A stretch of 64,000 bases of DNA from Flavobacterium psychrophilum (GTDB lineage Bacteria; Bacteroidota; Bacteroidia; Flavobacteriales; Flavobacteriaceae). Under the pieces are notes generated by a model. It was given only the letters and a program-made list of their open reading frames with translations, searched no databases and had not been told where the DNA came from. The translations under genes were made by a program, and so were the position numbers. The stretch is from NCBI GenBank assembly GCA_001708385.1, contig CP012388.1:3472001-3536000 (forward strand), given 5' to 3'. This document shows, piece after piece, positions 1 through 16,762 of this stretch. How positions within the stretch are numbered: position 1 is the first letter of the stretch; the number at the start of each line of letters is the position of its first letter.

Positions 1-90
1 TTCTGCTTCCTTTTCCCAGTTTTCAAAAGCTCCTTTACCTTTAATTTCATCAAAAGATATGGCTAAATCTTTAATATTAATTGGTCTCAT
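1..90 (-). CDS. Partial gene of unknown family, downstream partner of the AAA ATPase
   Basis: An ATG at position 90 on the minus strand opens a frame that runs 30 codons to the window edge without a stop. It starts MRPINIKDLAIS and is rich in Lys and Glu. It overlaps the end of the upstream ATPase gene by 14 bases, a typical sign of translational coupling. ATPases of this kind are often followed by a TIGR02646/PtuB-type HNH nuclease gene, but only the N-terminus is visible and no catalytic residue can be checked, so that identity is a guess. Confidence 0.45.
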   Translation of the reverse strand, partial: MRPINIKDLAISFDEIKGKGAFENWEKEAE

Positions 91-1717
91 CAGAAAAATG
101 TTGCTTGGTTAATTTTTCAATTATAGCCTTACTCAAAATCTTTAATTCTTCCTCTTCTTGATCTGTAAATTCAACTTTTTGAAATAAAGGATTTTCGGAT
201 ATTGCTTCTAAGTATTTATCATACCATGGATCAAAAGTTGTATCGTTAAAGCCTGATTCTTCTATTTCACTTTCAATCTTTTTATACTCCTGATATTCTA
301 CATCCGAATTTTCATTATTGTCAATTTTAAATTGTAAATACCTTTTCCGGTTAAGTTTTAACTGCATGTATTTACTTAAGACTGATGGTAATCCGAAAAG
401 TTCACTTCTCAGGATTCCTGTTACATCTAATGCTCTTGGATCAATATGTGGAATTTCTACTTCTAATTTTCCAGCATGATTGGTTCGGAAAATCCTAACT
501 TCTTCCTTGCGCAAACTTCCAATTACTAATGGATCGTGGGTGTTAATAATTATTTGAGTTGATTGATGTTTATCAACGACCTTATCTAAAAATTCTAAAT
601 ATCTCCATTTCCAAATTGGATTTAGATGGGTGTCAGGTTCATCTAATAGGATAAGGGAGTTCTCGGCTTTCGTAAATTTCAAAAGTCCTAAAACCGTCAG
701 TAATTGTTGCTCTCCTTCACTTAGTTCTTTGAAGACAATTTTACCAGCATTTCTTTTCCTAACTTTAACACGAACTTCTTCTATAAGATCTGAAATATAA
801 AGGCTTTCTAAAGCTTTGAAGAAATCAGTATTGTCCTTATAATGTTTAGCAAGTGCTTTTAAAGATGATTTATCCTTTATAAAAAGATATAATCTTTGCT
901 GAGTTTTACCATCTGTTCTAAAATTATCTTTAATTCGTGGTGAATCATATATTGGGGCTATAGCTAAATCCCATACTTTATCTAAAAAATTTTTAACCAA
1001 TCCATCGGAACCAAAGAATCGATTATCTCCTTTGCCTTTCCACAAAGGCTTCTTGAGGACAAATAAGACGGATTCCAAATCTTCAATACCCAAAATTTCA
1101 TTTAGAAACTCAACCGAAGATTTTTCTTCATCTTCAAAGGAAAAATAAGCAAGAAGCACAAAATATGAGTGAACTAATTGGACATAAAATAGTTTGCGTA
1201 AATCATCTAATTCATTTTCGCGAAAATTTTTCTTAATGATTTTTTCATAAAATGCTTTTTGATGATCCCAGAATATCTGTTCAAGTTTGTTGCTTAATCC
1301 TGAGTAATAAGCAAATACATACTTTGGCTGATATAAATGTTTTGTGTTTTGAGCAAAGAATGCCGAAAAAGGCTTCGTTTCGCCATTAACTGAGATAGAA
1401 TAGTCTCTCTTTTTAATATTACTATCTATTTGTTTAAAATCTTCGCTTTCTTCGCTTTCTTCGACTTCGCCTACTGTAATGTTAATTTTATGTTCATCAA
1501 TCGTATAATCAATTATATAATTGAAATCGGTTAGCTTTCTATCATTAGATTTACTAAGGTCGAGGTGTTTAAATATAAGAATGAGTGCTTCCATAAAGTT
1601 GGACTTTCCTGTAGCATTTTGTCCCATTAGAACTGTTTTCATTTCCCTGCAATCAAGGTCGATATGAAAGTCCCTTAAGTTCTTATAATTCTCTATATAG
1701 ACTTTATTTATTCTCAT
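77..1717 (-). CDS. AAA ATPase associated with a restriction system (PtuA/RecF-like)
   Basis: The 546-residue protein begins with an SMC/RecF-type ATP-binding half: a beta-strand KVYIENYKNLRDF, then Walker A GQNATGKSN near residue 33. The signature LSEGEQQLL lies near residue 335 and the Walker B segment LILLDEPDTHLNP near 357, followed by the His-switch strand IIINTHDP. This order is that of ABC-type ATPases of the OLD/RecF/PtuA group, and the GEQQLL...DEPDTHLNP core is typical of ATPases encoded within type I restriction or Septu loci. The gene overlaps hsdS by four bases (ATGA) and the next gene by 14, so the three are one operon. It probably senses or acts on DNA ends or invading DNA with its partner; the exact role is inferred. 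Confidence 0.8.
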   Translation of the reverse strand: MRINKVYIENYKNLRDFHIDLDCREMKTVLMGQNATGKSNFMEALILIFKHLDLSKSNDRKLTDFNYIIDYTIDEHKINITVGEVEESEESEDFKQIDSNIKKRDYSISVNGETKPFSAFFAQNTKHLYQPKYVFAYYSGLSNKLEQIFWDHQKAFYEKIIKKNFRENELDDLRKLFYVQLVHSYFVLLAYFSFEDEEKSSVEFLNEILGIEDLESVLFVLKKPLWKGKGDNRFFGSDGLVKNFLDKVWDLAIAPIYDSPRIKDNFRTDGKTQQRLYLFIKDKSSLKALAKHYKDNTDFFKALESLYISDLIEEVRVKVRKRNAGKIVFKELSEGEQQLLTVLGLLKFTKAENSLILLDEPDTHLNPIWKWRYLEFLDKVVDKHQSTQIIINTHDPLVIGSLRKEEVRIFRTNHAGKLEVEIPHIDPRALDVTGILRSELFGLPSVLSKYMQLKLNRKRYLQFKIDNNENSDVEYQEYKKIESEIEESGFNDTTFDPWYDKYLEAISENPLFQKVEFTDQEEEELKILSKAIIEKLTKQHFSDETN

Positions 1718-3306
1718 TCTTTATCTACCAACTTTAAAAATGACTCCTTTCCATCCCTTTTTGTTTCAATGACCACTCCTGATTCAATGTTTGTTTTGAG
1801 TGCGTCATAAAATTTATCAATACTGTCTTTGTAGATGGATGACTGCCAGACAAGGTTAGATGCTACCGGCTCTTTACTGTCTTTAAGAATCTCAATTATG
1901 TCTTTTAAATTTTCTTCCATATCCAAGGTATTAGGTGTAGATATTCTAGTAACTATTTCAAATTTATTACGGATAGACGGGAAAAGGAAGCGCTGGGTCT
2001 TAACCTTTTCAAGGAGTATCGTTGCGGGCTCGTCATTGCTTGTTTGGGGGACTAATTTTCCCTTCAAAGCATCTTGTAAAAGATGTTGCTTTAGAACATC
2101 AGATTGCAATAGCCCGAAATTAACTGACTTTTCAATCGCAGATATATTTGAGAACTGTCTATCTAATTCTTCTGCAATTGAAACTTGTTCATCATATGAC
2201 GAAGGGATAGGAATGGGTATTTTATTTAGGTTTAATTGAGATAGTTTAGGCTGTGCACTTCCGGTAACATATTTAGAAATGTCTAATGAATTAAAATAAT
2301 AGTATAGATAGTCTAAATGATAACCGCTTTTTGCCTGTACAATATGAGCATGATTGTTAACCCAAAATTTTCCATCAACTATAAATGCTAATTCTTTAGA
2401 TTTAGTTAAAAGGTTAGCTCCATCTTCACCTATCAAAAGATATCGACCCTCAAAAATGTAATCATCAATATGATCAATTACACCCGTTGCTCCATAATAT
2501 CTAAACTTACCTTTTCTCTTAGATCGCACAGATTTGCTGAGTGGTACCCTCTTTGAATCGTAGTTTAATATACATTCTTCAAATCTAATAATTTTCCATC
2601 CTTTTGGTAATTCCCCGAATTTTACTTCGGGGTCAATGAGTTTACCACTAAATGCATAATGTAAAATTGTAGTCTTGTACTTTTTTAGTTGAGCCAAAGC
2701 TATTTCTAATTGCTTATTACCTTTTTCTAATTCACTGAACAACTCGTCCAGTTTCGAAGCTATCCTGTCTTGCTCAGATCGAGGAGGAAGTGGGATAAAA
2801 ATATCTCTAACAATTGTTAAGTTAACCCTTGATCGGGTAGTACCCTTTGTAATCCTTTTAAATTGATCCTGAATATATTTACTGTTTATTGCATAGACTA
2901 AATAATCAGTATTTACGATTTGATTATCAGGTCTTATTCTCATAAGGTCAGCGACAATTATTCCTTCAGGGTATTTCGCCGGAACTTTGCAGCAAAGACC
3001 TAAAGGCTCTCCTAATTTAGTAATAATTATATCTCCTAATTGAAACGAATGGCGTTTCAACTCCTCTGCCTTTCGTTCAGTAATATATTGAATATTTTTA
3101 TCCAGAAAATAGCCAGCTTTAATGTTTTGGATCCTAAAAACGGGTATGCCTGCTGACTTATATTCATTTGCTTTTAGATTTGAACCAAAAGGTCCGTCAA
3201 CAAAGTCGCTTTTTGGATTGCTGACCATATCACTTAATTTAGCATTTATCCAATTCTCTGGTAAGCTCATATTGTTGTCAGTGTTATCTATATTCTTGGT
3301 ACACAT
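1714..3306 (-). CDS. hsdS: Type I restriction-modification specificity subunit HsdS
   Basis: HsdS reads the bipartite DNA target of a type I restriction enzyme and docks HsdM and HsdR. The 530-residue protein has the expected two-fold layout. The first target-recognition domain begins LPENWINAKLSDMV. The first conserved helix contains PPRSEQDRIASKLDELF followed by a long coiled region ending FSGKL. The second recognition domain starts around LPKGWKIIRFEECI, and the second helix (YDEQVSIAEELDRQF) ends LKGKLVPQ. About 100 extra C-terminal residues follow, possibly a small winged-helix extension. Start is the first ATG; an internal ATG 12 codons later (before SLPENW) is an equally good start. 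hsdM and hsdR are not in the window and may lie to the left. Confidence 0.92.
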   Translation of the reverse strand: MCTKNIDNTDNNMSLPENWINAKLSDMVSNPKSDFVDGPFGSNLKANEYKSAGIPVFRIQNIKAGYFLDKNIQYITERKAEELKRHSFQLGDIIITKLGEPLGLCCKVPAKYPEGIIVADLMRIRPDNQIVNTDYLVYAINSKYIQDQFKRITKGTTRSRVNLTIVRDIFIPLPPRSEQDRIASKLDELFSELEKGNKQLEIALAQLKKYKTTILHYAFSGKLIDPEVKFGELPKGWKIIRFEECILNYDSKRVPLSKSVRSKRKGKFRYYGATGVIDHIDDYIFEGRYLLIGEDGANLLTKSKELAFIVDGKFWVNNHAHIVQAKSGYHLDYLYYYFNSLDISKYVTGSAQPKLSQLNLNKIPIPIPSSYDEQVSIAEELDRQFSNISAIEKSVNFGLLQSDVLKQHLLQDALKGKLVPQTSNDEPATILLEKVKTQRFLFPSIRNKFEIVTRISTPNTLDMEENLKDIIEILKDSKEPVASNLVWQSSIYKDSIDKFYDALKTNIESGVVIETKRDGKESFLKLVDKE

Positions 3307-3640: not shown

Positions 3641-4702
3641 CTAGTCCATTGTTTTAAACCCATTATTACCTGCTATTGTATGCAGGGGCAAAATCACGCT
3701 CTGATAGGTTTCAGTAGTAATCCCTGTATTTTCAAGAAGGGGGAAAACAGTCCAATATTCTTCCAAGAACTTATTTTTAGGAAAGGTAGAAGTTACGATC
3801 TCATACGCGTGTTTGTGCAAACGGACAAACGGTTCTAAATATTTCTCTATAGATGGCAACCGATTTGATTTAGTGCTATTGAATTGTTTATCAATTGGCG
3901 CGAGGTTCCAAATCAGGTCATGCGATACGAAGGCATGGGGTATAAAATGGTCTACCGCATAATTGGTTATGTCCATTTTGGTATTGGTATATATGCAATC
4001 AATTGTTCCTATTTCCTTAAAGACAATATCCCAGTATTGTTTGCGTTGCATCGATAGCGAACCCCTAAATGGTGGCTTTACAAGCTTACCTGCAATATCT
4101 GGTACGCTTGGATTGCGCAACTGAAGAAATTCCGCAAGGTTCCATAAGCAAAAATCTTTTAGTATGCGCGAATGTATTTTCAGGTAATCCACCCACTTCG
4201 GATTAACAATAACCTGTCGACCATTGAGCGCGTATAAACATTCCTGCTCAAAAGTTGTTGATGCATCATAAATGTATCGTTTGTAACTACTATCACTGGT
4301 AGTGCCGGATTTGTTAAACCAAGGTGTCAAAAACCAATGTGGTACATTTTTATCGAAATGCCACAATGTTTTTATTGTAAGGAGATTTTTTGAAGCAGTC
4401 AACCGGGTTACAATTTCCTCCTGACGCAGGTTTACCGGTATGCCTTCTGTTTGTTTAATCATTTGTACTGCCTGCTGTAAAAGATCCTGTTTGCCAAACG
4501 ATACATGAAAGTAGTTTACGGTGTACCATGCCCCCGCAACCATACGGGCAAACAGTTCCTGTTTATTTATAATTGTATTTCCCTTTTCGACGGCTTCAAT
4601 TAATGCTAAAAACCAGTAGAATTTGTACGTTGCCGAGGTGCTTGAGAAAAGCCCGGAAAGCTTCTGGATGGGCAGGTTATTATCGTGAGGAAATTGGGGC
4701 AT
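3641..4702 (-). CDS. HNH endonuclease domain protein
   Basis: A 353-residue protein with a C-terminal HNH nuclease core around residues 250-290: DHFIPHAFVSHDLIWNL, followed by LAPIDKQFNSTKSNRLP. The Asp-His pair, the central Asn-Leu-x-Pro and the downstream Asn-Ser-x-Lys are the recurring positions of this HNH subfamily. The N-terminal 240 residues are helical and unassigned. The gene stands alone on the minus strand, divergent from the helicase gene across about 300 bases. Its position between a restriction operon and a defence-like cluster suggests a role in DNA interference, but that is context only. Confidence 0.75.
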   Translation of the reverse strand: MPQFPHDNNLPIQKLSGLFSSTSATYKFYWFLALIEAVEKGNTIINKQELFARMVAGAWYTVNYFHVSFGKQDLLQQAVQMIKQTEGIPVNLRQEEIVTRLTASKNLLTIKTLWHFDKNVPHWFLTPWFNKSGTTSDSSYKRYIYDASTTFEQECLYALNGRQVIVNPKWVDYLKIHSRILKDFCLWNLAEFLQLRNPSVPDIAGKLVKPPFRGSLSMQRKQYWDIVFKEIGTIDCIYTNTKMDITNYAVDHFIPHAFVSHDLIWNLAPIDKQFNSTKSNRLPSIEKYLEPFVRLHKHAYEIVTSTFPKNKFLEEYWTVFPLLENTGITTETYQSVILPLHTIAGNNGFKTMD

Positions 4703-4794: not shown

Positions 4795-4869
4795 AGCCCT
4801 GCCTGCGCCGTGATTGCAGCGGCATCCTTTTCAGAGAAAAAGATACAGCGGAAAGCGCGACGAGGCGCC
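4795..4869. repeat. REP-like palindromic repeat, copy 1
   Basis: A GC-rich block carrying the core GCAGCGGCATCCTTTT, then a short A-rich turn, AAAAAGATACAGC, and flanking GCGCC/GGCGCC arms. The TCCTTTT...AAAAAGATA part can fold back on itself. A second copy with the same core is at 12,556-12,626. Both copies lie between genes next to the defence-like cluster. Elements of this look are scattered between genes in flavobacterial genomes, as far as I recall. Confidence 0.7.
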
Positions 4870-5001: not shown

Positions 5002-7542
5002 ATGCCCCGCCGACAGCAAACATCTGCTATATCTATACTAAGTATTGTAATGCTTTGCATTTCAATTATTGGCATTTATTATTTGTATAAGAAATACGTA
5101 ATTGAGAAAAAGCAACGACAGCAGCTACTCTCTTTAAAAGAGCAAATAAATGAAGCCAATAGTTACGGTGCCCGTTTAGTTGATTTTAGCAGCTATTTTG
5201 CGTATTACGACGAGCAGCAGTACCGCAAGAACTTTCAAGCCTTGCGAAAATCAATAGTTCCCAACTACGGGCGTTTGGGACTGGATCTGCCCCTTGAGGA
5301 CGCAATCCGGACTTTTATAGCAACGTATGATTCCATAACTACAATCAGGAAAGACTACAATGATGCCTTTGTCAAAAAAGAATCAGAGGCCTACCGCTAC
5401 CTTTTTGATTCCCTTGAAGAATACCCTTTATCTGATGACCAGATTGAGGCAGTTATCCGGGATGAGGACAACAACCTGATCATTGCCGGGGCGGGTACGG
5501 GAAAGACTACCACAATATCTGCCAAGACGGCCTATATCCTGGAAAAAGGACTGGCAAAGCCCGAGGAGCTGTTGATCATTTCCTTTACCAAAAATGCGGT
5601 TAAAGAGATGAAGGAGCGTTGTGTAAAGTTCTGTAAAGACATCCCTGGCGTGGAAAACCTGGATGTAAGGACATTTAACAGCTATGGCTACCTGGTCAAG
5701 CGCCACTGCTCAAAAGACGAGCTGCACCTGGCCTTTGGTGGGGATGAAGAGGCTGCCAAGTCCTGCCTACAGGAAATATTTGATGAATTGTTTTTGAACG
5801 ATAGCACCTTCCAGCGTAAGGCGGTGAATTTCCTCGCTTTTTTCAACAGGCCGGAGCGCGACGAGTTCAAGTTTAAAACCAAGGATGAATATTTAAAGTA
5901 TGAGCAGAGCTTTAAAAACGTAACGCTTGATGGCAAAACAGTGAGCAGCAAGGAAGAAATGCAGATCGGCAATTTCTTCTGTTTGTTTGGTATCAACTAC
6001 GAGTACGAAAAGCACTTCCCGCTGGCACCTGAGGACCGTAATGCAGACTTTGGCAGCTACCACCCTGATTTTTTCCTGACCGATTATGAGATCTGGCATG
6101 AGCATTTTGGGATTGACCGCGAGGGTAATGTCCCAGACTGGTTTACCAATAAACATCCCTATCCGAATGCCACAGCATATTATACGGCAGGAATGCAATG
6201 GAAGCGCTACATACACTATAAAACAGGTTCGAAGCTGATTGAGACCTATTCGTATGAAAATAAGGAAGGGAGCCTTATCAACAACCTTAAAAAACGATTA
6301 TTGGAACTTGGCGTGGCACTAAACCCCCAAAAGCCCGAAGATATCCTTCCGATGGTAAAGCAATCGGCCTATTACGAAGATTTCATCAACCTTATGCACA
6401 CATTTTTAGGCCTTATGAAATCCAATGCCAAGTCGCCGGAGGCCATAATAGCAAAAATGGGCGACCGCCGCCTTTCTGTCTTCCTTGATGTTTTCAAACC
6501 AGTGTACCGACGTTATCAGGAACGTTTAAAAAGCGCTTCAGAGGTTGACTTTAATGATATGGTCAACCAGGCAGCCCAGCATATAGGCCGGGGCGATTTT
6601 ACAAGGCCTTATAAATATATACTTGTCGACGAGTTCCAGGATATGTCCCTTGGCCGTTATGAACTTCTGAAGAGCCTGAAAAAACAAAATCCAGGTGTCA
6701 AGTTGTATGCTGTAGGTGATGACTGGCAATCGATTTTCAGATTTACGGGTAGCGACATCTCAATTATCACCGAATTTGAGAAACACTTCGGTTTTACATG
6801 TATGACTCCAATTTTGCGCACCTACCGCTTCAACGACGAGATACTTCAGGTCTCAAGCAACTACATCCAGAAAAACCCTGCCCAAATCCGTAAAACCCTG
6901 TTTTCAGACCGAGTGGCGGATGCTAAAAGCTTTGCCTTTATCGGATCAGAAGTTGCCGGTGGCCGTGAAGCCCACCAAGAGGCGAAGGAGCTGGGGATCC
7001 GTTTGGTTTTGGAGGAGGTGAAAAGCCTCAATGCAAAAGCCAAAGTATTTTTAATCGGCCGCTACCACCATAATATACCACATTCCTTCAAGACCTTGCA
7101 AAAGGAGTATCCTGGCCTGACGGTAGAATACTACACGGCTCACCGGTGTAAGGGTATGACCTGCGATTACGCTATCCTTTTGGATGTTAATTCCGGTACG
7201 CTGGGTTTCCCCTCAGAGATGGCTGACGATCCACTACTGAACTATTTATTACATGAGGGTGACGGTTATGAGAATGCAGAGGAGCGCCGTGTATTCTATG
7301 TGGCAATCACTAGGGCCAGGCATAAGAATTTCCTGTTGTATAATAAACTAAACCCCAGTAAATTCCTAAGTGAGATTATGGATGAGCCGGACGCAGCTGA
7401 ATCACTGGCATCAAAATGCCCGGAATGTAGCGGGCGGCTTGTCGAGCGCAAAGGCCCTTACAGCACTTTTATCGGATGTTCCAACTATCCGCATTGTGAT
7501 TACAAAAAAAGTAAGAGCCTTACCGCTACCACAACCGTTTAA
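5002..7542 (+). CDS. UvrD/HelD-like superfamily 1 helicase with membrane anchor, inserted nuclease-like domain and C-terminal zinc ribbon
   Basis: An 846-residue SF1A helicase. A hydrophobic segment at residues 9-29 probably anchors it to the membrane and is followed by a basic, coiled stretch. Helicase motifs are complete: Q-motif LSDDQ, Walker A AGAGTGKTT (162-170), DEFQD, GDDWQSIFRFTG, TAHRCKGM and VAITRARH. Between motifs Ia and II sits an insertion with YHPDFFL, EHFGID and MQWKRY, resembling the PD-(D/E)XK-like insertion of bacterial helicase IV. The C-terminus has a topoisomerase-type zinc ribbon with CPEC and CSNYPHC. It lies directly upstream of the STAND gene, with the stop at 7542 only 7 bases before a possible GTG start, so the two are probably coupled. 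It likely unwinds or translocates on DNA; a defence role is inferred from context. Confidence 0.85.
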   Translation: MPRRQQTSAISILSIVMLCISIIGIYYLYKKYVIEKKQRQQLLSLKEQINEANSYGARLVDFSSYFAYYDEQQYRKNFQALRKSIVPNYGRLGLDLPLEDAIRTFIATYDSITTIRKDYNDAFVKKESEAYRYLFDSLEEYPLSDDQIEAVIRDEDNNLIIAGAGTGKTTTISAKTAYILEKGLAKPEELLIISFTKNAVKEMKERCVKFCKDIPGVENLDVRTFNSYGYLVKRHCSKDELHLAFGGDEEAAKSCLQEIFDELFLNDSTFQRKAVNFLAFFNRPERDEFKFKTKDEYLKYEQSFKNVTLDGKTVSSKEEMQIGNFFCLFGINYEYEKHFPLAPEDRNADFGSYHPDFFLTDYEIWHEHFGIDREGNVPDWFTNKHPYPNATAYYTAGMQWKRYIHYKTGSKLIETYSYENKEGSLINNLKKRLLELGVALNPQKPEDILPMVKQSAYYEDFINLMHTFLGLMKSNAKSPEAIIAKMGDRRLSVFLDVFKPVYRRYQERLKSASEVDFNDMVNQAAQHIGRGDFTRPYKYILVDEFQDMSLGRYELLKSLKKQNPGVKLYAVGDDWQSIFRFTGSDISIITEFEKHFGFTCMTPILRTYRFNDEILQVSSNYIQKNPAQIRKTLFSDRVADAKSFAFIGSEVAGGREAHQEAKELGIRLVLEEVKSLNAKAKVFLIGRYHHNIPHSFKTLQKEYPGLTVEYYTAHRCKGMTCDYAILLDVNSGTLGFPSEMADDPLLNYLLHEGDGYENAEERRVFYVAITRARHKNFLLYNKLNPSKFLSEIMDEPDAAESLASKCPECSGRLVERKGPYSTFIGCSNYPHCDYKKSKSLTATTTV

Positions 7543-7636
7543 ACTTACAGTGATACCCGGCAGAAAAGTAGTTGCCTCTTTTTCCGATTATAAAACTTAT
7601 TTTCCTTATCACCAACCTTTAGAATATCCTTGCTTT

Positions 7637-10600
7637 ATGAGCGTTACCAAAAATGCCCCTGATGGTTATGACTATCAGTATCTTGCTAGTCTCTACGCCT
7701 TTCTTTTACTGGGAAAGTCAAGAAAAATTGCAGAAGCCTATATTGACAGGGAAGGCTTTGGCGACTTAACTTTAATCTTTACGGATCACAGAGATGAACC
7801 TTACGAGTTTGAATTTAAAAATCGCAAGCCGGGTTTTGATGAAAAATATTTTGTGGAATGTATTTCGAAGTTTAGTGCCCATAGTGATTCCGAGTACATA
7901 CTGTCCAAGTTGTCTACGGGAAAAATCAAGCGTTTTTACCTGATAACATCAACACGGGTGGAACAGTTTGCAGCCGATTTCTTTGTAATAACTACTAAAT
8001 CAGACTGGAGCAAACCTTTACCGCAGTACAAAAAAAAGATTTTTGAAGCGTTTCGCGCAGCAGTGCTAAAGTATAACCAGAAAGACGAGCCCCGTGATAA
8101 ATATGTAGCATCGCATATAGGTTCTGCAACAGATCTTGATTTGAAAAATCTGCTTGAGGGCATCTACCTTGTGGATCAGTTGGATGAAGACCAGATTCGT
8201 GCCAGAATCCACGATCTTTTGTCGGACTTAACGATAGCATTGTCGCATCAGGGTAGCTTGATTAACAAACTTATTGATGTCATTAAAAATAGTAAGACTT
8301 CGGGCTTAAATATCGCGGATACTATATATAACGAGCTACATTCATTACAATCATGGTCGCTTCCGGTGGATGAACATTATCTCTTAATGGGAGACGAAGC
8401 CAGCCTTTTGGATGAACTCAGCTCGCGAAAAATAGTTTTGCTCACCGGGAGTACCCTATGCGGCAAGACCCAACGGGCTTACTACATTGCTCAGCAGCTC
8501 CTCAAAAATTATCCTTCGGCTAAGTTTCTTCCGGTAGGTGAGGTTCATATGGCAGAACAATTCTTACTGAATTATGACGCTGAGACAAAGATTTGCTATC
8601 TTGAAGATCCTTTGGGGCAATACCGTGACGATGTAGGTATGGTCGCATACAAACAATTGGAGGGGCTATTGAGGCGTATGCCAAAATACATGGAGCGTTA
8701 TCTTATTGTAACGGCAACCACCGAAATTACTACAGCCATTAGTAAAAGCGGCTATATGAGCGAATTTACCTGGCATGACCTTACTGTGCGTGAGGCCCCG
8801 ATAGCATGCAAGATATGGAATGCATTATCTTCCGGATCGGGTTTTGACCACCTTATTCAAAAAATGGTAGTCGAAACGATAGAGACCGCAGATCAGGATG
8901 CTATTCTCCAGCCCGGACAATTAAAGCAGCTCGTCGGCTCATTACAGGCCAATCGTCCAGGGAGCCTTGAACAAGTAAGGCATTTAGCCAGCGCCAAAGC
9001 GCAGGACATTACAAATGTAATTACCTCAAGGGGGGAATCAGTTACTAATGCAATGATTATACTGGGGCTTGGTGCTACGATTCAAAAAGGTCTCTATGAC
9101 ATTGACCTGTCCTATCTTGAGCATTCAGAGCCGGACTATCTCCCCGGTATTAATGATGATGAAACCGGGGTCACAGGAACATCGATTAGCGCCTTGGAAA
9201 CAGTATACATGATCCCTGAATACAAAAGTTTTACTGCGAGCGTGTCACTGCGTGGTGTCATTTCACAGCTGATCGATTATGGGTACATTCGTGCGTTTGG
9301 GGATGGCAGTTATGTTTTTGCCCACCCTGTATATCAGGAGGCAGCCAGACGGCTTTTAGACGGCAATAACCCAATGCGATTTGAGGCCGCCCTAAGACAC
9401 TGTCGCAAATTGTTGGGTTGCCTGAATCCATCTTTGGCATTGCAAAGTGCAAAGAATCTTTACTTGCTTTATACCAATGCGTTAAACCAGACACAGCGGC
9501 AAATTGTTTTTGACCTTGCAACATTGGCGATACGATCAACATTTGTAGTGGTACGGGAAGAAGCCCTTCTATTTTTAGTTGCCCATCGTAATGCTTTAAA
9601 TGAAATGATTACAGGAAATGTAAAAGATGCTTTTCAACATAGGAATGATTTTGGTACAGGAAATTACTGTTGGCAGGGGCAAATCCTTTTTATACCCGAT
9701 GCCAAGCATCTGGAGACATGCAGAAGCCGGAATTATAGAAGCAAAAGGCAGTGCCTTGATAACTGGGAAGCCTACCTGTCAAGGCCCGTATCCTTGGAGC
9801 CAGCTCAGGCTTTCGAATTAATGGATGGGCTTTTGCTGGTAACTAAGTCAGAAAAAAGACAGCTAAGTTTTGATTATATTGTGCTAAAGGCATTCCTTCG
9901 TTATAGAGAGGGTGTTATCAGGGAGCGTGCTGCCTATCTTATCGCCGCAAGTATCACCGAGGAAACTTTTGCTGACCTTACTACGCTGTATTATGAAAAT
10001 GATCCTTTTGTAAAATTCCAGCTTATTCGTGGGCTTTTTCGTTCCTGGCCTTACATGACGGACAAGAATAAGAAAAGTGAAGTCTTGGCGTTCATGCAGG
10101 CTACCTTTGATGAACCTTTCGTTATTCTCGGTGCCATCGGCTTATTTACAGAATTTGCGGCGGGGTATGCACGGAGTAGCTTTGACTGGATGTATGAAAT
10201 ACAAGCTTCTATCAAGAAGCACATGTGGTTCCTTTGGGGAGAACTGATGGTAGTTCTTTTTCGCCACCTTCCGACGGATGTACATGTTAATCATGGCCGG
10301 TTCAGTGCGACCTTAGCAGAGGCTCAAATCAGTAAGGAGGCAAGAGTAAAAATTATTTTTGCTTATCTTGACTGGCTTCCGGCATATTTTAAAGACTCTG
10401 GCCGTTACTGGGATATGTCTGAAATCTTTATTTTTTTCCTGAGAGAAAACTTTCTAATGATTCCTAAAGTGAGGCGTATTGGCTTGATAAAAAAAATGTT
10501 ACTTCTGGAAGATACGGAGTTTGTTGCATCAATGGCTAATTTGCTCATTTCAAATTGGGGAAATTTAAATGATAAGGAAAAGAAAGTTATCCTCTCTGCC

Positions 10601-11491
10601 TTGCCAAGCTTAGGCAGAAAGGGGCAGTTGGCTGCATTTAGTTGTCCAGAAGCCACAGTGGACGTACAGCTTGCTGCCACTGGAGTTAGCATCCTGGGCT
10701 TAAGCACCACCACGATTGCCAATACCCTCACGGAGGACTTTATCAAGGAATTATTATCGGCAGTATATCTTGATTATTCACGATGGGGTGTTGCCAATTT
10801 AAATAAGGTTGTCTTTGACCCTTTGCTCTATTATTATATTGATAAAACTGATAAAAAACCATTTGCAGTAGCAGTGCGTGTTTTCCTTGATGATTTTCTT
10901 TTCAACAGTAGTAGAAATGGACTTTGGAAAAAACCTAAATCACTGATAGATGGTATAGTATCCGGCGGCAACGCTCATGCATTTTTGCTTACAACAACCA
11001 TACTGCTTCATGACCTTATCGTCAATCGCGGCAGCCGAGCCGGTATTTTACTTGATGTGCTGTACAAAGACGCTACACAGGATAATCTGGCAACACTGAG
11101 TGTGAAAATAATAAATAACTTAGAGGGGATATCCTACAGTGAAAACCTTAAAAGCGTCAAGAATTACATTTCAGAGTATTACCAAGACAATTTTATCCTT
11201 GAGAAGAGTATTTCAATGTTACTTGATATGCCGTCTGATAACGATGACCATACAATTGTAAAAAAGGGATTTGCAAAAATAATATTGTTTGGCCTTGAAC
11301 AAAAAAAGTTACGCTTGCATCATTACCTATTATACTTCCGTGACTGGGCTGATAAGAATACACATTTAATGGAAGAGCAATACAAACCTATAATTAATGA
11401 TTACTTCAGCTATTTGCATGGAATTTCTCGAGAGCAGGCAGAGGCCATGGAACAGGAAATAGTTAATTCATCCTCCTATTTAAATAATTAA
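7637..11491 (+). CDS. Avs-like STAND NTPase with N-terminal Cap4-like PD-(D/E)XK nuclease domain
   Basis: About 1,284 residues. The N-terminus has GYDYQYLASLYAFLL, a Glu-Asp stretch (IDREGFGDLTL) and a YEFEFKNR strand, the arrangement of the Cap4/DUF4297-type dsDNA nuclease with an E-x-K catalytic pair. A P-loop LLTGSTLCGKTQ lies near residue 275 and Walker B KICYLEDPLGQY near 320, as in STAND ATPases of the nSTAND3 kind. The remaining 900 or so residues are helical repeats with no domain I can name, suited to sensing. Nuclease - STAND - helical sensor is the plan of Avs antiviral proteins. I chose the ATG at 7637; a GTG at 7550 would add 29 residues and couple it to the helicase. Family assignment is by motif only. 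Confidence 0.7.
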   Translation: MSVTKNAPDGYDYQYLASLYAFLLLGKSRKIAEAYIDREGFGDLTLIFTDHRDEPYEFEFKNRKPGFDEKYFVECISKFSAHSDSEYILSKLSTGKIKRFYLITSTRVEQFAADFFVITTKSDWSKPLPQYKKKIFEAFRAAVLKYNQKDEPRDKYVASHIGSATDLDLKNLLEGIYLVDQLDEDQIRARIHDLLSDLTIALSHQGSLINKLIDVIKNSKTSGLNIADTIYNELHSLQSWSLPVDEHYLLMGDEASLLDELSSRKIVLLTGSTLCGKTQRAYYIAQQLLKNYPSAKFLPVGEVHMAEQFLLNYDAETKICYLEDPLGQYRDDVGMVAYKQLEGLLRRMPKYMERYLIVTATTEITTAISKSGYMSEFTWHDLTVREAPIACKIWNALSSGSGFDHLIQKMVVETIETADQDAILQPGQLKQLVGSLQANRPGSLEQVRHLASAKAQDITNVITSRGESVTNAMIILGLGATIQKGLYDIDLSYLEHSEPDYLPGINDDETGVTGTSISALETVYMIPEYKSFTASVSLRGVISQLIDYGYIRAFGDGSYVFAHPVYQEAARRLLDGNNPMRFEAALRHCRKLLGCLNPSLALQSAKNLYLLYTNALNQTQRQIVFDLATLAIRSTFVVVREEALLFLVAHRNALNEMITGNVKDAFQHRNDFGTGNYCWQGQILFIPDAKHLETCRSRNYRSKRQCLDNWEAYLSRPVSLEPAQAFELMDGLLLVTKSEKRQLSFDYIVLKAFLRYREGVIRERAAYLIAASITEETFADLTTLYYENDPFVKFQLIRGLFRSWPYMTDKNKKSEVLAFMQATFDEPFVILGAIGLFTEFAAGYARSSFDWMYEIQASIKKHMWFLWGELMVVLFRHLPTDVHVNHGRFSATLAEAQISKEARVKIIFAYLDWLPAYFKDSGRYWDMSEIFIFFLRENFLMIPKVRRIGLIKKMLLLEDTEFVASMANLLISNWGNLNDKEKKVILSALPSLGRKGQLAAFSCPEATVDVQLAATGVSILGLSTTTIANTLTEDFIKELLSAVYLDYSRWGVANLNKVVFDPLLYYYIDKTDKKPFAVAVRVFLDDFLFNSSRNGLWKKPKSLIDGIVSGGNAHAFLLTTTILLHDLIVNRGSRAGILLDVLYKDATQDNLATLSVKIINNLEGISYSENLKSVKNYISEYYQDNFILEKSISMLLDMPSDNDDHTIVKKGFAKIILFGLEQKKLRLHHYLLYFRDWADKNTHLMEEQYKPIINDYFSYLHGISREQAEAMEQEIVNSSSYLNN

Positions 11492-11496
11492 CAGCT

Positions 11497-12513
11497 ATGA
11501 CAGCGCCAGTTTATAATATCTTCGAAGTGTTAGAAAAAGGAGATAAGGAATTAATACATTCAGCTTTTATAAAGTTTTTAATGCAGGACCGGCCCGACTT
11601 TTATTTTCAGTTTTTGAAACTTGAGGGGGATTACAACCCTCCTCAACTTGAGAAAACTTATGGTAAAGGGAAGCAGAAAAGTCGTTTTGATATAGAGGTC
11701 CAGAGCATTGATGGCAATGCGGTCATAACTGTGGAAAATAAGTTCAAGTCCTTTCCGGATTTTGCTCAGCTTCAAGCCTACGAGGCGAGTTTAAAAAAGT
11801 ACCACAAGAAAAAAAAGCACCATAAATTTTTGATTTGCTTTGACAAGGAGGTTGTTTCACACGTGGAGGGTTGGATTGTAAAGGATTATAAAGACCTCGC
11901 GGTTTATGTCAGGGAACATTATGATCTTGCAGGGAGTGATGACACCAGCGTTTTTGTAAGACACTACTATTTTTTACTTGAAGGATACTACAGTAGATAT
12001 GAGACCTTAAACTCTGACTTACGCCCCCTTTTTTGCATACCTGTGGCGGAGAGTAATAATTTTTGGCTCAAACTTTTTTATCATGCGCTAAAATGCAGGC
12101 TTGACATCTTTTTTGCTGAAAAAAATCTCTTGGTAGAGGTGTATGTCAACAAGGGCAATACCCTGACTCCGCTGATGAATATTGTTCCTTTGCACTGGGA
12201 CAACGGCCATAAGCGACTATTGATTCAATTCCAGGGCAATGACTTAAAGTTTTATCTGAACAATGATAGTAAGGAGCTACTTTTAAGGCTTATTGATTTT
12301 GCAAATGAATGTTTTCAACAGGGCAGGTATTCGTTAAAGAAACTTACCAACAGGGAGTCTAAAACCTGTTTTATACTTAAAACCACTATCACAAAGGAGC
12401 ATCCAGAAGCACCCATGACTATAAATACGGTATTTGATTTGGTTATTGCGTTTTATAAAATGTTGGATGAGCATATAATTTTTAAATATCTTAATTGGGA
12501 AAGCAAAATGTAA
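11497..12513 (+). CDS. PD-(D/E)XK nuclease superfamily protein (PDDEXK_4-like)
   Basis: The 338-residue protein starts five bases after the STAND gene stop, so it is in the same operon. A nuclease core is visible near residues 55-90: RFDIEVQ supplies the Asp, and AVITVENKFKSFPD supplies the E-x-K pair, followed by QLQAYEASL, a helix with the Gln-Tyr often seen after the active site in the PF14281 group. The rest is mixed alpha/beta with no further motif. Linkage suggests an effector or accessory nuclease of the helicase/STAND cluster, or an independent restriction-like protein. Confidence 0.7.
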   Translation: MTAPVYNIFEVLEKGDKELIHSAFIKFLMQDRPDFYFQFLKLEGDYNPPQLEKTYGKGKQKSRFDIEVQSIDGNAVITVENKFKSFPDFAQLQAYEASLKKYHKKKKHHKFLICFDKEVVSHVEGWIVKDYKDLAVYVREHYDLAGSDDTSVFVRHYYFLLEGYYSRYETLNSDLRPLFCIPVAESNNFWLKLFYHALKCRLDIFFAEKNLLVEVYVNKGNTLTPLMNIVPLHWDNGHKRLLIQFQGNDLKFYLNNDSKELLLRLIDFANECFQQGRYSLKKLTNRESKTCFILKTTITKEHPEAPMTINTVFDLVIAFYKMLDEHIIFKYLNWESKM

Positions 12514-12555: not shown

Positions 12556-12626
12556 TCGCGCCCGTGACCGCAGCGGCATCCTTTTCTGAAAGAAAAGATA
12601 CAGCATAGGGCGCGTGAAGGTGCCCC
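12556..12626. repeat. REP-like palindromic repeat, copy 2
   Basis: Shares the core CAGCGGCATCCTTTT, then a self-complementary TCTGAAAGAAAAGATACAGC turn, with copy 1 at 4,795-4,869. It is flanked by GCGCCC and GGGCGCG arms. It sits between the PD-(D/E)XK gene and the convergent small gene, so it could also act as a terminator. Confidence 0.7.
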
Positions 12627-12985: not shown

Positions 12986-15900
12986 ATGAAAATCATAGAC
13001 AGGACCGACATTGAATCGTGGGCAAAACGTTATGAAGCCAAGAGCGATTTTCCCTATTTAATTTCAAGGCTAGTGAGGGCCACCGGGCTGCCGAGCTTAC
13101 AGGTCAACATACTTTCAGGGAGTGCTGCCTACTTAGGTGGCTGGGACGGAATTGTTTTTTCGGAGGATGACCGCAGCTACTACCCTAAAGGCATTTCACT
13201 ATGGGAGTTCGGTACGGAATCCAATGTAAAGAAAAAAGCTGAAGAGGATTATAAGAAACGGACTGCCGATCCTTTGGGGTATAATAAAAGTGAATGTACG
13301 TATATTTTTATTACACCCTATCTGTATACGAAGAAGGGAGCATGGGTGAAGGAGAAAAAGGCGGAGGGGGTATGGAAAGATGTACGGTTTTACGACGCTG
13401 TCGATCTTGTACAGTGGCTTGACCATTGTACGCCCGTAGAAATCTGGTTTGCCACATTAACAGGTAAACTGCCCTACGACGGAATTTATGGGGCTGACCA
13501 ATTTTGGGAAGAATGGTCGGTTGGCCCACAGTATACCTTTACTCCCGAAAGTATAACCTCAGGCAGGGAACGTGCAATGGAAGCCTTAAAGGAATTTTTA
13601 TCCGGAGCGCCCGGCATAAAGGCTTTCAGGGCGTCCACCAAAAATGAAGCGATAGCTTTTGTTGTAGCCAGCGCAAAGCAGTTTTTACCTGAAGAACAGA
13701 ACCGTTTTTTCGCAAAAACTTTATTGGTTGAACATGAAAGTTCTTATAGACCCCTACACAAGAATACCAAAGTTGCTCTTAATATCATTCCTAAATTTGA
13801 GAACAAACAGTCGGTATATGCCGCGGTCTCCAGTGGACACCATGTTATTGTACCCCTGGGAGGAGATGATGAATTTAGCAAAGACTTTACAGTAGGATTA
13901 CCCATACTTGGTAAGGAAGGGCTTGTGAATTCCTTGGTGGCAATGGGGTTTTCACGTGAAGATGCAGAGCGTTACTCCAGGGAAGCGGCGCGGGACATTA
14001 CAATACTCCGCCGTATGCTGCATTTTCAGCATAATGCTCCGATATGGAGTAAAAGTGCCCAGGTACCGGAATTACTGCCCGCCCTGATTGTGGGCCGGTG
14101 GAATGATAAAAGCGAAGCGGATCAGGAACTATTAGTTAAGTTGGCGGGTAAGCCCTATGACCAATTTGTAGCCGAAATGGCGCAATGGCTCCGAAAGCAG
14201 GAAGCGCCCCTGTTATTTATTGGTGATATGTGGCGGTTAACATCACCTTTAGATTTATGGTCGACCATAGCCTCACATTTAAAAAGCAGCGACCTTCAGT
14301 ACTTAAGCGATGCATTGCAATTAGTGTACGGTGATTTTACTGAAGAGGCTCCAGGGGATGAATCTAAATATTTCACTAAACCTACAAAATATTCAAAGTG
14401 GATTAAAGAAGGCCTTACACAATCTATTGTGCTCATTGCGGTCTATGGCTATGGGTTAAATATTCCCGGAGTAAGTAACCCACAGCTTTGGGTTAATGGG
14501 ATAGTATCGAGCTTGATAGGAGCAGCTACTGGCCCACAATGGAAAAGCTTTGACCAGCAATTGCCACTTTTGTCAGAGGCATCCCCGGAAGTTTTTATCG
14601 AGGCTGTATACAGCAGTCTAGAACATCCTGACAAACCTATTATGGAAATGTTTAATACTTCACAGGGACTTCTTGGGGATACCCCGCACCACACAGGCTT
14701 GTTGTGGGCATTGGAAGGCCTCGCCTGGTTACCGGAGTATCTGTATGATATTACAATACTGTTGCTTAAGTTATCGGACTTAGACCCAGGTGGAAACCTT
14801 GTAAACAGACCTGACAACTCCCTTGTTGAAATTTATTTACCATGGCACCATCAAACCCTGGCTCCGTATAAGGAGCGCATGGAAATATTGGAGGCGGCAG
14901 TCATGCGCGAACCGGAACAGGGCTGGCATTTATTGCTTAGGCTTTTACCTAAGAATTTTGGTTATGCAAGCCCCACACATAAAATGAGATGGAGGCTTTT
15001 TAGCCAGGACACGAACCTTACATATACCTATGAAGAGACTTACGAGACCTATAGCCATGTTATCAGGCTGCTCTTAAAGCTGTATGATAAGAGTGAAGTA
15101 CGTATGGCACAATTGGTGGAACAATCCGATGAGTTAGCAAACATTGCTGATCTTGAGGTGGTATTGTCTTTTATTGAGGATGCGTTGCCAGAAATGCCTC
15201 CTTCGGAAGTCATCCGGGAAAAACTCCGCAGTATATTGTCACGCCACAGGGCTCACCCTGATGCGCAATGGGCGCTTCCACAAGAATTTTTAGTGCGTTA
15301 CCAAAAGCTTTATGATCTTATGATACCGGATGACCTTTTGCAAAAAAACAAATGGTTGTTCGAGGGCCATTATATTGAGTTTCCCGATGGTGACCCTGAC
15401 TGGGATTCAACTGACGAAAAACACCTCGCACACAGTAACCGTATAAAAAGTGAACGTCTTTCTGCTCTACAAGACATATATCAGTCTAACGGTGTTTCAG
15501 GAGTTATAGAGTTAGCAAGTATTGCGGGCTTTCCGACGGGTGTTGGTGAGACGCTTTCGGAAATTGAACTTTCAGACCCTGAAATAATAGAGGTTACGAA
15601 AGTGCTTTTTTCAAATGATGCGCCTTTAGAATTCCTGCATAGCTTTATAAGAGGCATGGTGCAACGACATGGGCTTGACTGGGCCATTAAACTATATGAT
15701 ACATTTTCATCAAAAGATTATGCTCAGGAAGGGCTTGTCAATGTTTTTACACACTTAAACCACAATACACCGCTTTGGGATTTTGTTGACAAACAAGATG
15801 AAAAGTTCCGTGAGTTATTCTGGTCGAAAACATGGGTTAATTTTTATCATGTCACACCAGAAGAAAAACTTAGGGGCATCAAGTACCTACTTAAATACAA

Positions 15901-16762
15901 GCGGTTTTATTCCGCCGTCGAAGAAACTTATATGGGTAAGGAAAAAATTAACCCTGAATTTATATACGAGGTTCTTGATACCACAGCAAAAAACAAGTCT
16001 GCAGAAGAGCGGCCACTTAGGGAGTATGTAATTTCCACCTTATTTGAAAGGCTTGATAAAAGTGACCTTCCCGATGAAAAAAAGGCATCGTTGGAACTTC
16101 ACTATCTCAGTATCATTGGAAATTCCCCAAGCCGCTACAAACCAAAGTATCTTAATAAAGAATTGGCTGAAAATCCAAAATCTTTTGTTGAGGTTTTAAA
16201 ATGGGTGTACATGCCTAAAAGTGAAGATCGCAGAAAAGAGGAGTTTGAGAATATATCGAGGGAAGCCCGGGAAGGTTTGGCCAGGCAGGGCTATAGGTTA
16301 CTGGATAATTTCAAGGATATACCGGGGATGGATGCTGATGGAACTGTTGATGCTGTCGTACTTAATTCCTGGGTAGCCGAAGTACGCGAATTGGCTGCAT
16401 TGGAGGACCGGCTTGAAATTGCAGATATGCAAATTGGAAAGTTGCTGGCTCAATATCCCGAGAAAAATAAGGAATATTGGCCTGCGGATGCTATAAGTGA
16501 CGTTTTGGAACTTGTCAATACGGAAAGCATTAAAAATAATTTTTCTATTGCGATTACTAATAAACGTGGTTTTACGTCAAGAGCCGCCTTTGAGGGTGGT
16601 GCTATTGAAAGAAGAAATGCCGCATATTTCCAAACACTCTCTGACGCACAAAGGTTGAAGCACCCCATGGTTTCAAAAATACTCGGACAAATAGCACAAC
16701 GTTATCTTAATGACGCACAGCGGGAAGATGATGAGGCTAAGAGGGACAGTTTAGAATATTAA
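12986..16762 (+). CDS. Large protein with N-terminal restriction-endonuclease-like GWDG domain, candidate defence protein
   Basis: A 1,258-residue protein. Residues 1-180 form a domain with LSGSAAYLGGWDGIV, YPKGISLWEFGT, a Lys-Ala-rich helix with DYKKRTADPLG, the strand TYIFITPYLY and YDAVDLVQWLD. The Asp of GWDG and the Glu of WEFG could be the two acidic residues of a PD-(D/E)XK-like fold, but no clear catalytic Lys follows on the same strand. A segment KAFRASTKNEAIAFVVA lies where related large proteins have a divergent NTPase strand-loop-helix; no intact P-loop is visible. The long remainder is helical and unassigned. It has its own short upstream region after the convergent small gene. 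Role in defence is inferred from architecture and neighbours. Confidence 0.6.
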   Translation: MKIIDRTDIESWAKRYEAKSDFPYLISRLVRATGLPSLQVNILSGSAAYLGGWDGIVFSEDDRSYYPKGISLWEFGTESNVKKKAEEDYKKRTADPLGYNKSECTYIFITPYLYTKKGAWVKEKKAEGVWKDVRFYDAVDLVQWLDHCTPVEIWFATLTGKLPYDGIYGADQFWEEWSVGPQYTFTPESITSGRERAMEALKEFLSGAPGIKAFRASTKNEAIAFVVASAKQFLPEEQNRFFAKTLLVEHESSYRPLHKNTKVALNIIPKFENKQSVYAAVSSGHHVIVPLGGDDEFSKDFTVGLPILGKEGLVNSLVAMGFSREDAERYSREAARDITILRRMLHFQHNAPIWSKSAQVPELLPALIVGRWNDKSEADQELLVKLAGKPYDQFVAEMAQWLRKQEAPLLFIGDMWRLTSPLDLWSTIASHLKSSDLQYLSDALQLVYGDFTEEAPGDESKYFTKPTKYSKWIKEGLTQSIVLIAVYGYGLNIPGVSNPQLWVNGIVSSLIGAATGPQWKSFDQQLPLLSEASPEVFIEAVYSSLEHPDKPIMEMFNTSQGLLGDTPHHTGLLWALEGLAWLPEYLYDITILLLKLSDLDPGGNLVNRPDNSLVEIYLPWHHQTLAPYKERMEILEAAVMREPEQGWHLLLRLLPKNFGYASPTHKMRWRLFSQDTNLTYTYEETYETYSHVIRLLLKLYDKSEVRMAQLVEQSDELANIADLEVVLSFIEDALPEMPPSEVIREKLRSILSRHRAHPDAQWALPQEFLVRYQKLYDLMIPDDLLQKNKWLFEGHYIEFPDGDPDWDSTDEKHLAHSNRIKSERLSALQDIYQSNGVSGVIELASIAGFPTGVGETLSEIELSDPEIIEVTKVLFSNDAPLEFLHSFIRGMVQRHGLDWAIKLYDTFSSKDYAQEGLVNVFTHLNHNTPLWDFVDKQDEKFRELFWSKTWVNFYHVTPEEKLRGIKYLLKYKRFYSAVEETYMGKEKINPEFIYEVLDTTAKNKSAEERPLREYVISTLFERLDKSDLPDEKKASLELHYLSIIGNSPSRYKPKYLNKELAENPKSFVEVLKWVYMPKSEDRRKEEFENISREAREGLARQGYRLLDNFKDIPGMDADGTVDAVVLNSWVAEVRELAALEDRLEIADMQIGKLLAQYPEKNKEYWPADAISDVLELVNTESIKNNFSIAITNKRGFTSRAAFEGGAIERRNAAYFQTLSDAQRLKHPMVSKILGQIAQRYLNDAQREDDEAKRDSLEY

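What the first reader, a model, noticed from the sequence alone, without database searches (positions are those of the whole stretch)
5002..12513. Helicase, Avs-like STAND NTPase/nuclease and PD-(D/E)XK gene form a candidate defence operon
Three plus-strand genes are tightly packed (a GTG 7 bases after the helicase stop; five bases before the third gene). They code for a membrane-anchored UvrD/HelD-type helicase with zinc ribbon, a protein with Cap4-like nuclease, P-loop STAND core and about 900 residues of helical repeats, and a PDDEXK_4-like protein. Avs proteins combine nuclease, STAND and sensor in one chain. Coupling one to a membrane-anchored helicase and a second nuclease is not an arrangement I know.
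Basis: partly seen in the sequence, partly recalled or inferred. Interest (0 to 1): 0.85.

Follow-up and report, generated by a model that had tools for sequence, protein, structure and literature searches.

The report
Two-nuclease phage-sensor gene pair
Two tightly packed genes in a Flavobacterium-like genome encode a large protein predicted to sense phage infection and then cut DNA, plus a second predicted DNA-cutting enzyme likely to work with it, while the helicase gene beside them is likely a bystander.

Summary
The three genes are real, but the proposed three-gene operon is not supported as a unit. Gene B (7637-11491) carries an nSTAND3 NTPase, the domain reported for Avs5. Its N-terminal domain keeps a D...[E/Q]xK signature (8 of 8 aligned heads) and matches Cap4 nucleases profile-to-profile. 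Gene C (11497-12513), 5 bp downstream, is a PDDEXK_4 protein; its confident model shows a second, YbjN-like domain. The nearest relatives of B (55%) and C (61%) both report a longest contig of 5073 bases, so the pair is probably conserved at least once. C is absent beside B in 10 of 10 other B loci read, so the pair is at best a rare sub-variant. Helicase A belongs to a widespread helicase-IV-like family and has neither B nor C nearby in 9 of 9 loci read. B starts at ATG 7637 by homology, so the A-B gap is 94 bp, not 7. One point favours an A-B-C block: a roughly 60-bp direct repeat flanks all three, its exact 16-mer occurring only twice in the genome. Best reading: an Avs-like nuclease receptor with a partner nuclease, beside a bystander helicase; function is inferred. 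A new variant of a known kind.

The parts
7637..11491 (+). Gene B: 1284-aa Avs-like protein (Cap4-like head, nSTAND3 core, C-terminal region of unknown fold)
   Evidence: Start by homology; nSTAND3; relatives
7637..8011 (+). B residues 1-125: predicted Cap4-like PD-(D/E)XK nuclease head (D43, E59, K61)
   Evidence: hhalign P 8.7e-5 against Cap4 proteins, shuffles lower; D43 and K61 in 8 of 8, E/Q59 in 8 of 8
8369..9001 (+). B residues 245-455: nSTAND3 NTPase core, Walker A 271-278, Walker B 319-325
9002..11488 (+). B residues 456-1284: C-terminal region, assumed sensor; residues 571-1284 not modelled
   Evidence: No Pfam repeat hit at E<=1; conserved along its length in four proteins; role inferred
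11497..12513 (+). Gene C: 338-aa PDDEXK_4 protein
   Evidence: Pfam; 47 relatives; AF2 mean pLDDT 90.2
11497..11937 (+). C residues 1-147: PD-(D/E)XK nuclease domain (E18, D65, E80, K82)
12010..12507 (+). C residues 172-337: YbjN / secretion-chaperone-like domain, possible docking domain
5002..7542 (+). Gene A: helicase-IV-like protein with N-terminal hydrophobic segment and C4 zinc ribbon; read as a neighbour, not a part of the system
   Evidence: linkage test
4808..4869 (+). Left copy of the structured direct repeat
12562..12624 (+). Right copy of the structured direct repeat

Best explanation
Genes B and C likely form a two-gene anti-phage system in which B is predicted to sense a phage protein, assemble through its nSTAND3 NTPase and cut DNA with its Cap4-like domain, while C would add a second DNA-cutting activity. 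Inferred: phage sensing by the C-terminal region, ATP-driven assembly, damage by DNA cleavage, and docking of C on B through its chaperone-like half. Helicase A is read as a separately acquired neighbour.
For: nSTAND3 in B and in 5 of 7 other B-like proteins scanned from loci over the cut-off plus L032; exactly 6 of 7 over cut-off, L029 just under. nSTAND3 is the NTPase named for Avs5 (PMC12931631, passages). Nuclease head: hhalign P 8.7e-5, score 32.8, against at most 15.5 in 40 column shuffles; D43/K61 in 8 of 8. C: PDDEXK_4 over cut-off, E18/D65/E80/K82 in 28 of 28, confident model. Pairing: 5-bp gap; P0002 and P0005 both with longest contig 5073, the two genes needing 4884 bases. Island setting: PtuA-like AAA, HsdS, HsdM and PLD nuclease genes next door. 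Similar GC3 of B and C (40.9, 42.2) against 51.5 in A.
Against: C is absent beside B in 10 of 10 other B loci read, and relatives of C at 45-49% identity sit on long contigs whose lengths match no B hit. The 5073 contig itself was not read. The window's nuclease head has no Pfam hit and a low-confidence model. No Avs-named model among the PADLOC hits of B. GC3 of B and C lies inside the spread of the 14 window genes computed, 24.9-54.4. No phage assay exists.
Confidence: 0.55

Rival explanations
1. B is a complete one-gene Avs-like system, and C is an unrelated single-gene nuclease (PDC-S26-like) that landed behind it in a defence island.
For: B stands without C in 10 of 10 other loci read. 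PADLOC holds PDDEXK_4-like proteins as single-gene candidates: PDC-S26 hits, best E 3.9e-11.
Against: 5-bp packing and the shared 5073-base contig length of the nearest relatives of both.
Confidence: 0.27
2. A, B and C form one three-gene system, with the helicase feeding or exposing DNA for the two nucleases.
For: Same strand, short gaps, and a direct repeat whose exact 16-mer occurs only twice in the genome brackets exactly A-B-C.
Against: B and C absent from 9 of 9 helicase loci read; A absent from 10 of 10 other B loci; a 90%-identical helicase in Flavobacterium sp. RHBU_3 with no B of that strain among the three B proteins found (a capped search); A-B gap 94 bp after the start correction; GC3 of A unlike B and C.
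Confidence: 0.1
3. C is not an effector but a regulator of B: its chaperone-like half holds B inactive until infection.
For: The C-terminal half of C resembles chaperone-like folds; C follows B at 5 bp.
Against: The nuclease residues of C are invariant in 28 of 28 aligned relatives, so catalysis seems kept; 10 of 10 other B loci do without C.
Confidence: 0.06

Closest known systems
Avs5 / AVAST type 5 (SIR2 - nSTAND3 - repeats; PMC12931631, passages seen)
   Same: nSTAND3 NTPase (PF20720), N-terminal effector, long C-terminal region after it
   Different: B has a Cap4-like nuclease head in place of SIR2, and a nuclease gene 5 bp downstream; its C-terminal repeats were not tested
Avs1-Avs4 (nuclease effectors, as stated in PMC12931631, passage)
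   Same: Nuclease effector on a STAND receptor
   Different: No Avs-named model among the PADLOC hits of B; the only Pfam NTPase family over cut-off is nSTAND3; Avs1 pairs with an MBL nuclease and a protease (PMC12799240, passages), here the partner is PDDEXK_4
Cap4 nuclease domain (PF14130), also HerA-DUF4297 (PMC11291478, listing and start of abstract only)
   Same: G-Y-x-YQ start, D...[E/Q]xK signature
   Different: Window protein not matched by the Pfam model; partner domains differ
PDDEXK_4 / PDC-S26 single-gene candidates
   Same: C scores over the PDDEXK_4 cut-off and hits PDC-S26 models
   Different: C is packed behind an nSTAND3 gene and has a YbjN-like second half
DNA helicase IV (E. 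coli HelD)
   Same: Gene A aligns at 34% and 31% over two blocks; PRK11054 is its best NCBIfam model
   Different: A scores 386 bits, under the model cut-off of 543, and has a hydrophobic N-terminus, a large insert and a zinc ribbon that HelD lacks

Membership tests
Avs (AVAST) | STAND NTPase with Walker A and B | tested here: met
   nSTAND3 34.8 bits over 27.2; conserved Walker columns
Avs (AVAST) | Match to a catalogued Avs model | tested here: not met
   PADLOC hits of B at E<=1 are only mad8 (0.0086) and Csm3 (0.025)
Avs (AVAST) | C-terminal repeat sensor | not tested
   Residues 571-1284 not modelled; no Pfam repeat hit at E<=1
Avs (AVAST) | Anti-phage activity triggered by a phage protein | not testable with these tools
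   Needs infection assays
Avs5 | nSTAND3 domain (PF20720) | tested here: met
   domain assignment of Avs5 from PMC12931631
Avs5 | SIR2-like effector at the N-terminus | tested here: not met
   No SIR2 hit at E<=1 in B; D...[E/Q]xK signature instead
Cap4_nuclease (PF14130) | D...[E/Q]xK active-site signature in a G-Y-x-YQ context | tested here: met
   D43 and K61 in 8 of 8, position 59 E in 3 and Q in 5; aligned on Cap4 residues
Cap4_nuclease (PF14130) | Pfam score over the cut-off | tested here: not met
   No hit in the window head; one of eight heads at E 0.028
Cap4_nuclease (PF14130) | PD-(D/E)XK fold | tested here: inconclusive
   Strand order fits but pLDDT is 24-57 over residues 1-240
PDDEXK_4 (PF14281) | Pfam score over the cut-off and intact active site | tested here: met
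   40.3 bits over 22.3; E18, D65, E80, K82 in 28 of 28
DNA helicase IV (PRK11054) | Equivalog score over the cut-off | tested here: not met
   385.8 bits, cut-off 543
Conserved A-B-C operon | Homologues of the three genes occur together elsewhere | tested here: not met
   0 of 9 helicase loci have B or C; 0 of 10 other B loci have A or C
Conserved B-C pair | Homologues of B and C adjacent elsewhere | tested here: inconclusive
   P0002 and P0005 share a longest-contig length of 5073, contig not read; 0 of 10 other B loci have C

The most novel reading that the evidence does not exclude
A two-nuclease Avs-like immune pair: an nSTAND3 receptor with its own Cap4-like nuclease recruits a separate PD-(D/E)XK nuclease through a chaperone-like docking domain, so that phage sensing sets off two different DNA cuts.
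Probability: 0.35. Interest if true: 0.6.

Novelty: new variant of a known kind. Interest (0 to 1): 0.42.

Why it matters
If B and C work together, STAND receptors would have another way to add a trans-acting nuclease, parallel to the MBL nuclease-protease pairs described for Avs1 and Hachiman, and a PDDEXK_4 protein would gain a partner and a docking domain to test. It also shows the nSTAND3 chassis of Avs5 joined to a nuclease-like head (B) and an HNH-like head (L032), not SIR2 alone. For annotation, it takes a helicase out of a system it probably does not belong to.

Tried and rejected
Tried without result. Sequence or profile search of B against the PDB gave no STAND structure (head profile). 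Viral contigs gave no B or C relative; phage records none of C or B; plasmids none of C. The first genome-contig scan with B alone found none; the allowed second scan with the profile found two. C profile in 249 genus genomes: 8 with a match, own included; the other seven are partial and weaker, best E 1.2e-11. Four stretches around such hits and one Cap4 locus showed no B-profile match at E<=0.01 among ORFs of 100 aa or more. The repeat had no convincing match in plasmids (best E about 2). Paper searches on nSTAND3, Cap4 with Avs or AVAST, PDDEXK_4, Avs5, bacterial NLR with DUF4297, and Flavobacterium with Avs listed no paper on such a pair; one search mixed two terms and its five listed papers held none of the PDDEXK_4 term, and the library lacks most subscription journals and preprints, so this is weak. 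A helicase IV search gave nothing of use.

Full report
What is there. Three plus-strand genes lie at 5002-7542 (A), 7637-11491 (B) and 11497-12513 (C) in a single-contig genome of 4.14 Mb. Close helicase relatives named by their sources are Flavobacterium proteins (RHBU_3 90%, F. album 74%, J372 72%), so the host is Flavobacterium-like. Upstream on the minus strand lie an HNH gene and a restriction-type operon; downstream is a 1258-aa protein without a Pfam family over cut-off.

The nuclease head of B. The window protein has no Pfam hit there; one of the eight aligned heads reaches Cap4_nuclease at E 0.028. I gathered Cap4 matches from Bacteroidota genomes. Of ten loci, seven entered the alignment; L062, L063 and L067 were dropped because my script did not recover an open frame, and two of the seven (L070, L071) are under the Pfam cut-off. 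Profile-profile alignment of the eight heads with these seven gave probability 60.0, P 8.7e-5 and score 32.8; 40 column shuffles reached at most 15.5, and the C family gave 10.6. With the full head alignment the probability was 45.5. The alignment puts G-Y-x-YQ, D43 and E59-x-K61 on the Cap4 residues. D43 and K61 are kept in 8 of 8; position 59 is E in 3 and Q in 5. The low-confidence model has helix, three strands, helix. I take a Cap4-like nuclease as likely, not proven. A relative, L032, starts with an HNH-like region instead (HNH_2 at E 0.019, under its cut-off), which looks like effector exchange.

Gene A. Its best NCBIfam model is DNA helicase IV (386 bits, cut-off 543), with Zn_ribbon_Top1 at the C-terminus. 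It aligns with E. coli HelD at 34% and 31% over two blocks and differs by a hydrophobic N-terminus, a large insert and the zinc ribbon. The family is widespread: 417 proteins at E<=1e-60 in a capped search, 120 listed. Of the 114 listed proteins of 780 aa or more, 101 have a hydrophobic N-terminus and 88 a C4 pattern by my criteria.

Linkage. B by sequence in 100 relatives: 2, own and G042. B profile in 395 phylum genomes: 10 at E<=1e-3, own included; three have long matches (own, G416, G185) and seven match the NTPase part only. Ten other B loci were read: L004, L028, L029, L031, L032 and plasmid loci L041-L045. None has a C-profile match at E<=0.1 or a helicase match at E<=1e-5. Flanks held are 2.1 to 10 kb a side; L031 and L044 are frame-broken and L043 is interrupted by an insertion sequence. 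Nine helicase loci were read: none has B or C, and one (L030) has the HNH relative 7 kb away; L034 is only 3.7 kb. C by sequence: 1 of 100 and 1 of 395 genomes, the own one. The sign of a conserved B-C pair is that P0002 and P0005, the nearest relatives of B and C, both report a longest contig of 5073 bases, of which the two genes need 4884. None of the 120 listed helicases reports that length. I could not read that contig.

Composition and borders. GC3 is 51.5 in A, 40.9 in B and 42.2 in C, against 53.6 and 53.2 in LigD and DNA polymerase III; the 14 window genes computed span 24.9 to 54.4, so this is a weak sign that A is host-like and B-C are not. Against it, a structured repeat of about 60 bp lies in the same orientation at 4808-4869 and 12562-12624. 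Its exact 16-mer occurs twice in the whole genome, its reversed control not at all; a 35-base pattern with up to three mismatches found only the right copy, since the left lacks one base. Of 21 viral-collection stretches with the 16-mer, L088, L090 and L094 also carry the second block nearby; the others do not in the bases printed. It is thus a dispersed intergenic element, and its two copies may mark a piece that came in together. Folding of the copies is modestly better than shuffles (z -1.69 and -1.55).

Reading. B works like an Avs receptor: nSTAND3 is the NTPase named for Avs5 in PMC12931631 (passages), which also says that Avs1-4 use nuclease effectors. B misses two strict tests, a PADLOC Avs model and the SIR2 head of Avs5, so I call it Avs-like. 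C is best read as a partner nuclease; PMC12799240 (passages) describes a separate nuclease of another fold, activated by a protease, in Avs1. The helicase is most likely a neighbour. My confidence in the B-C system is 0.55; B as a nuclease-STAND defence protein on its own is likelier than that.

Noticed in passing
window 4808-4869 and 12562-12624: Structured direct repeat of about 60 bp on both sides of A-B-C; the exact 16-mer occurs only twice in the genome. Similar elements lie in viral-collection contigs L088, L090 and L094.
   Followed up: partly
window 77-3306 (-) and L005:6458-9994 (-): Minus-strand run of HsdS, a PtuA-like AAA ATPase (E 4.5e-170 to a PADLOC PtuA model), a gene without a Pfam hit, HsdM and a PLD nuclease: a restriction locus with a Septu-like ATPase inside.
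   Followed up: partly
window 12986-16762 (+): 1258-aa protein without a Pfam family over cut-off; 22 plasmid records match, 18 over at least 80% of it, best 41.5% on an Adhaeribacter plasmid. A candidate stand-alone defence protein.
   Followed up: partly
L004:1186-6840 (-): Beside B in G042: a metallo-beta-lactamase-fold gene, a protein that looks protease-like by eye, and an SMC-like ATPase gene on the opposite strand.
   Followed up: no
window 3641-4702 (-) and L030:930-1991: The HNH gene divergent from the helicase has a 49% relative on the same contig as a helicase relative, about 7 kb away, with methyltransferase genes between.
   Followed up: no
window 5002-7542, helicase residues about 260-440: Insert absent from E. 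coli HelD with a PDF...EHFG motif (30 of 114 relatives by one pattern); it may be a degenerate nuclease-like domain.
   Followed up: no
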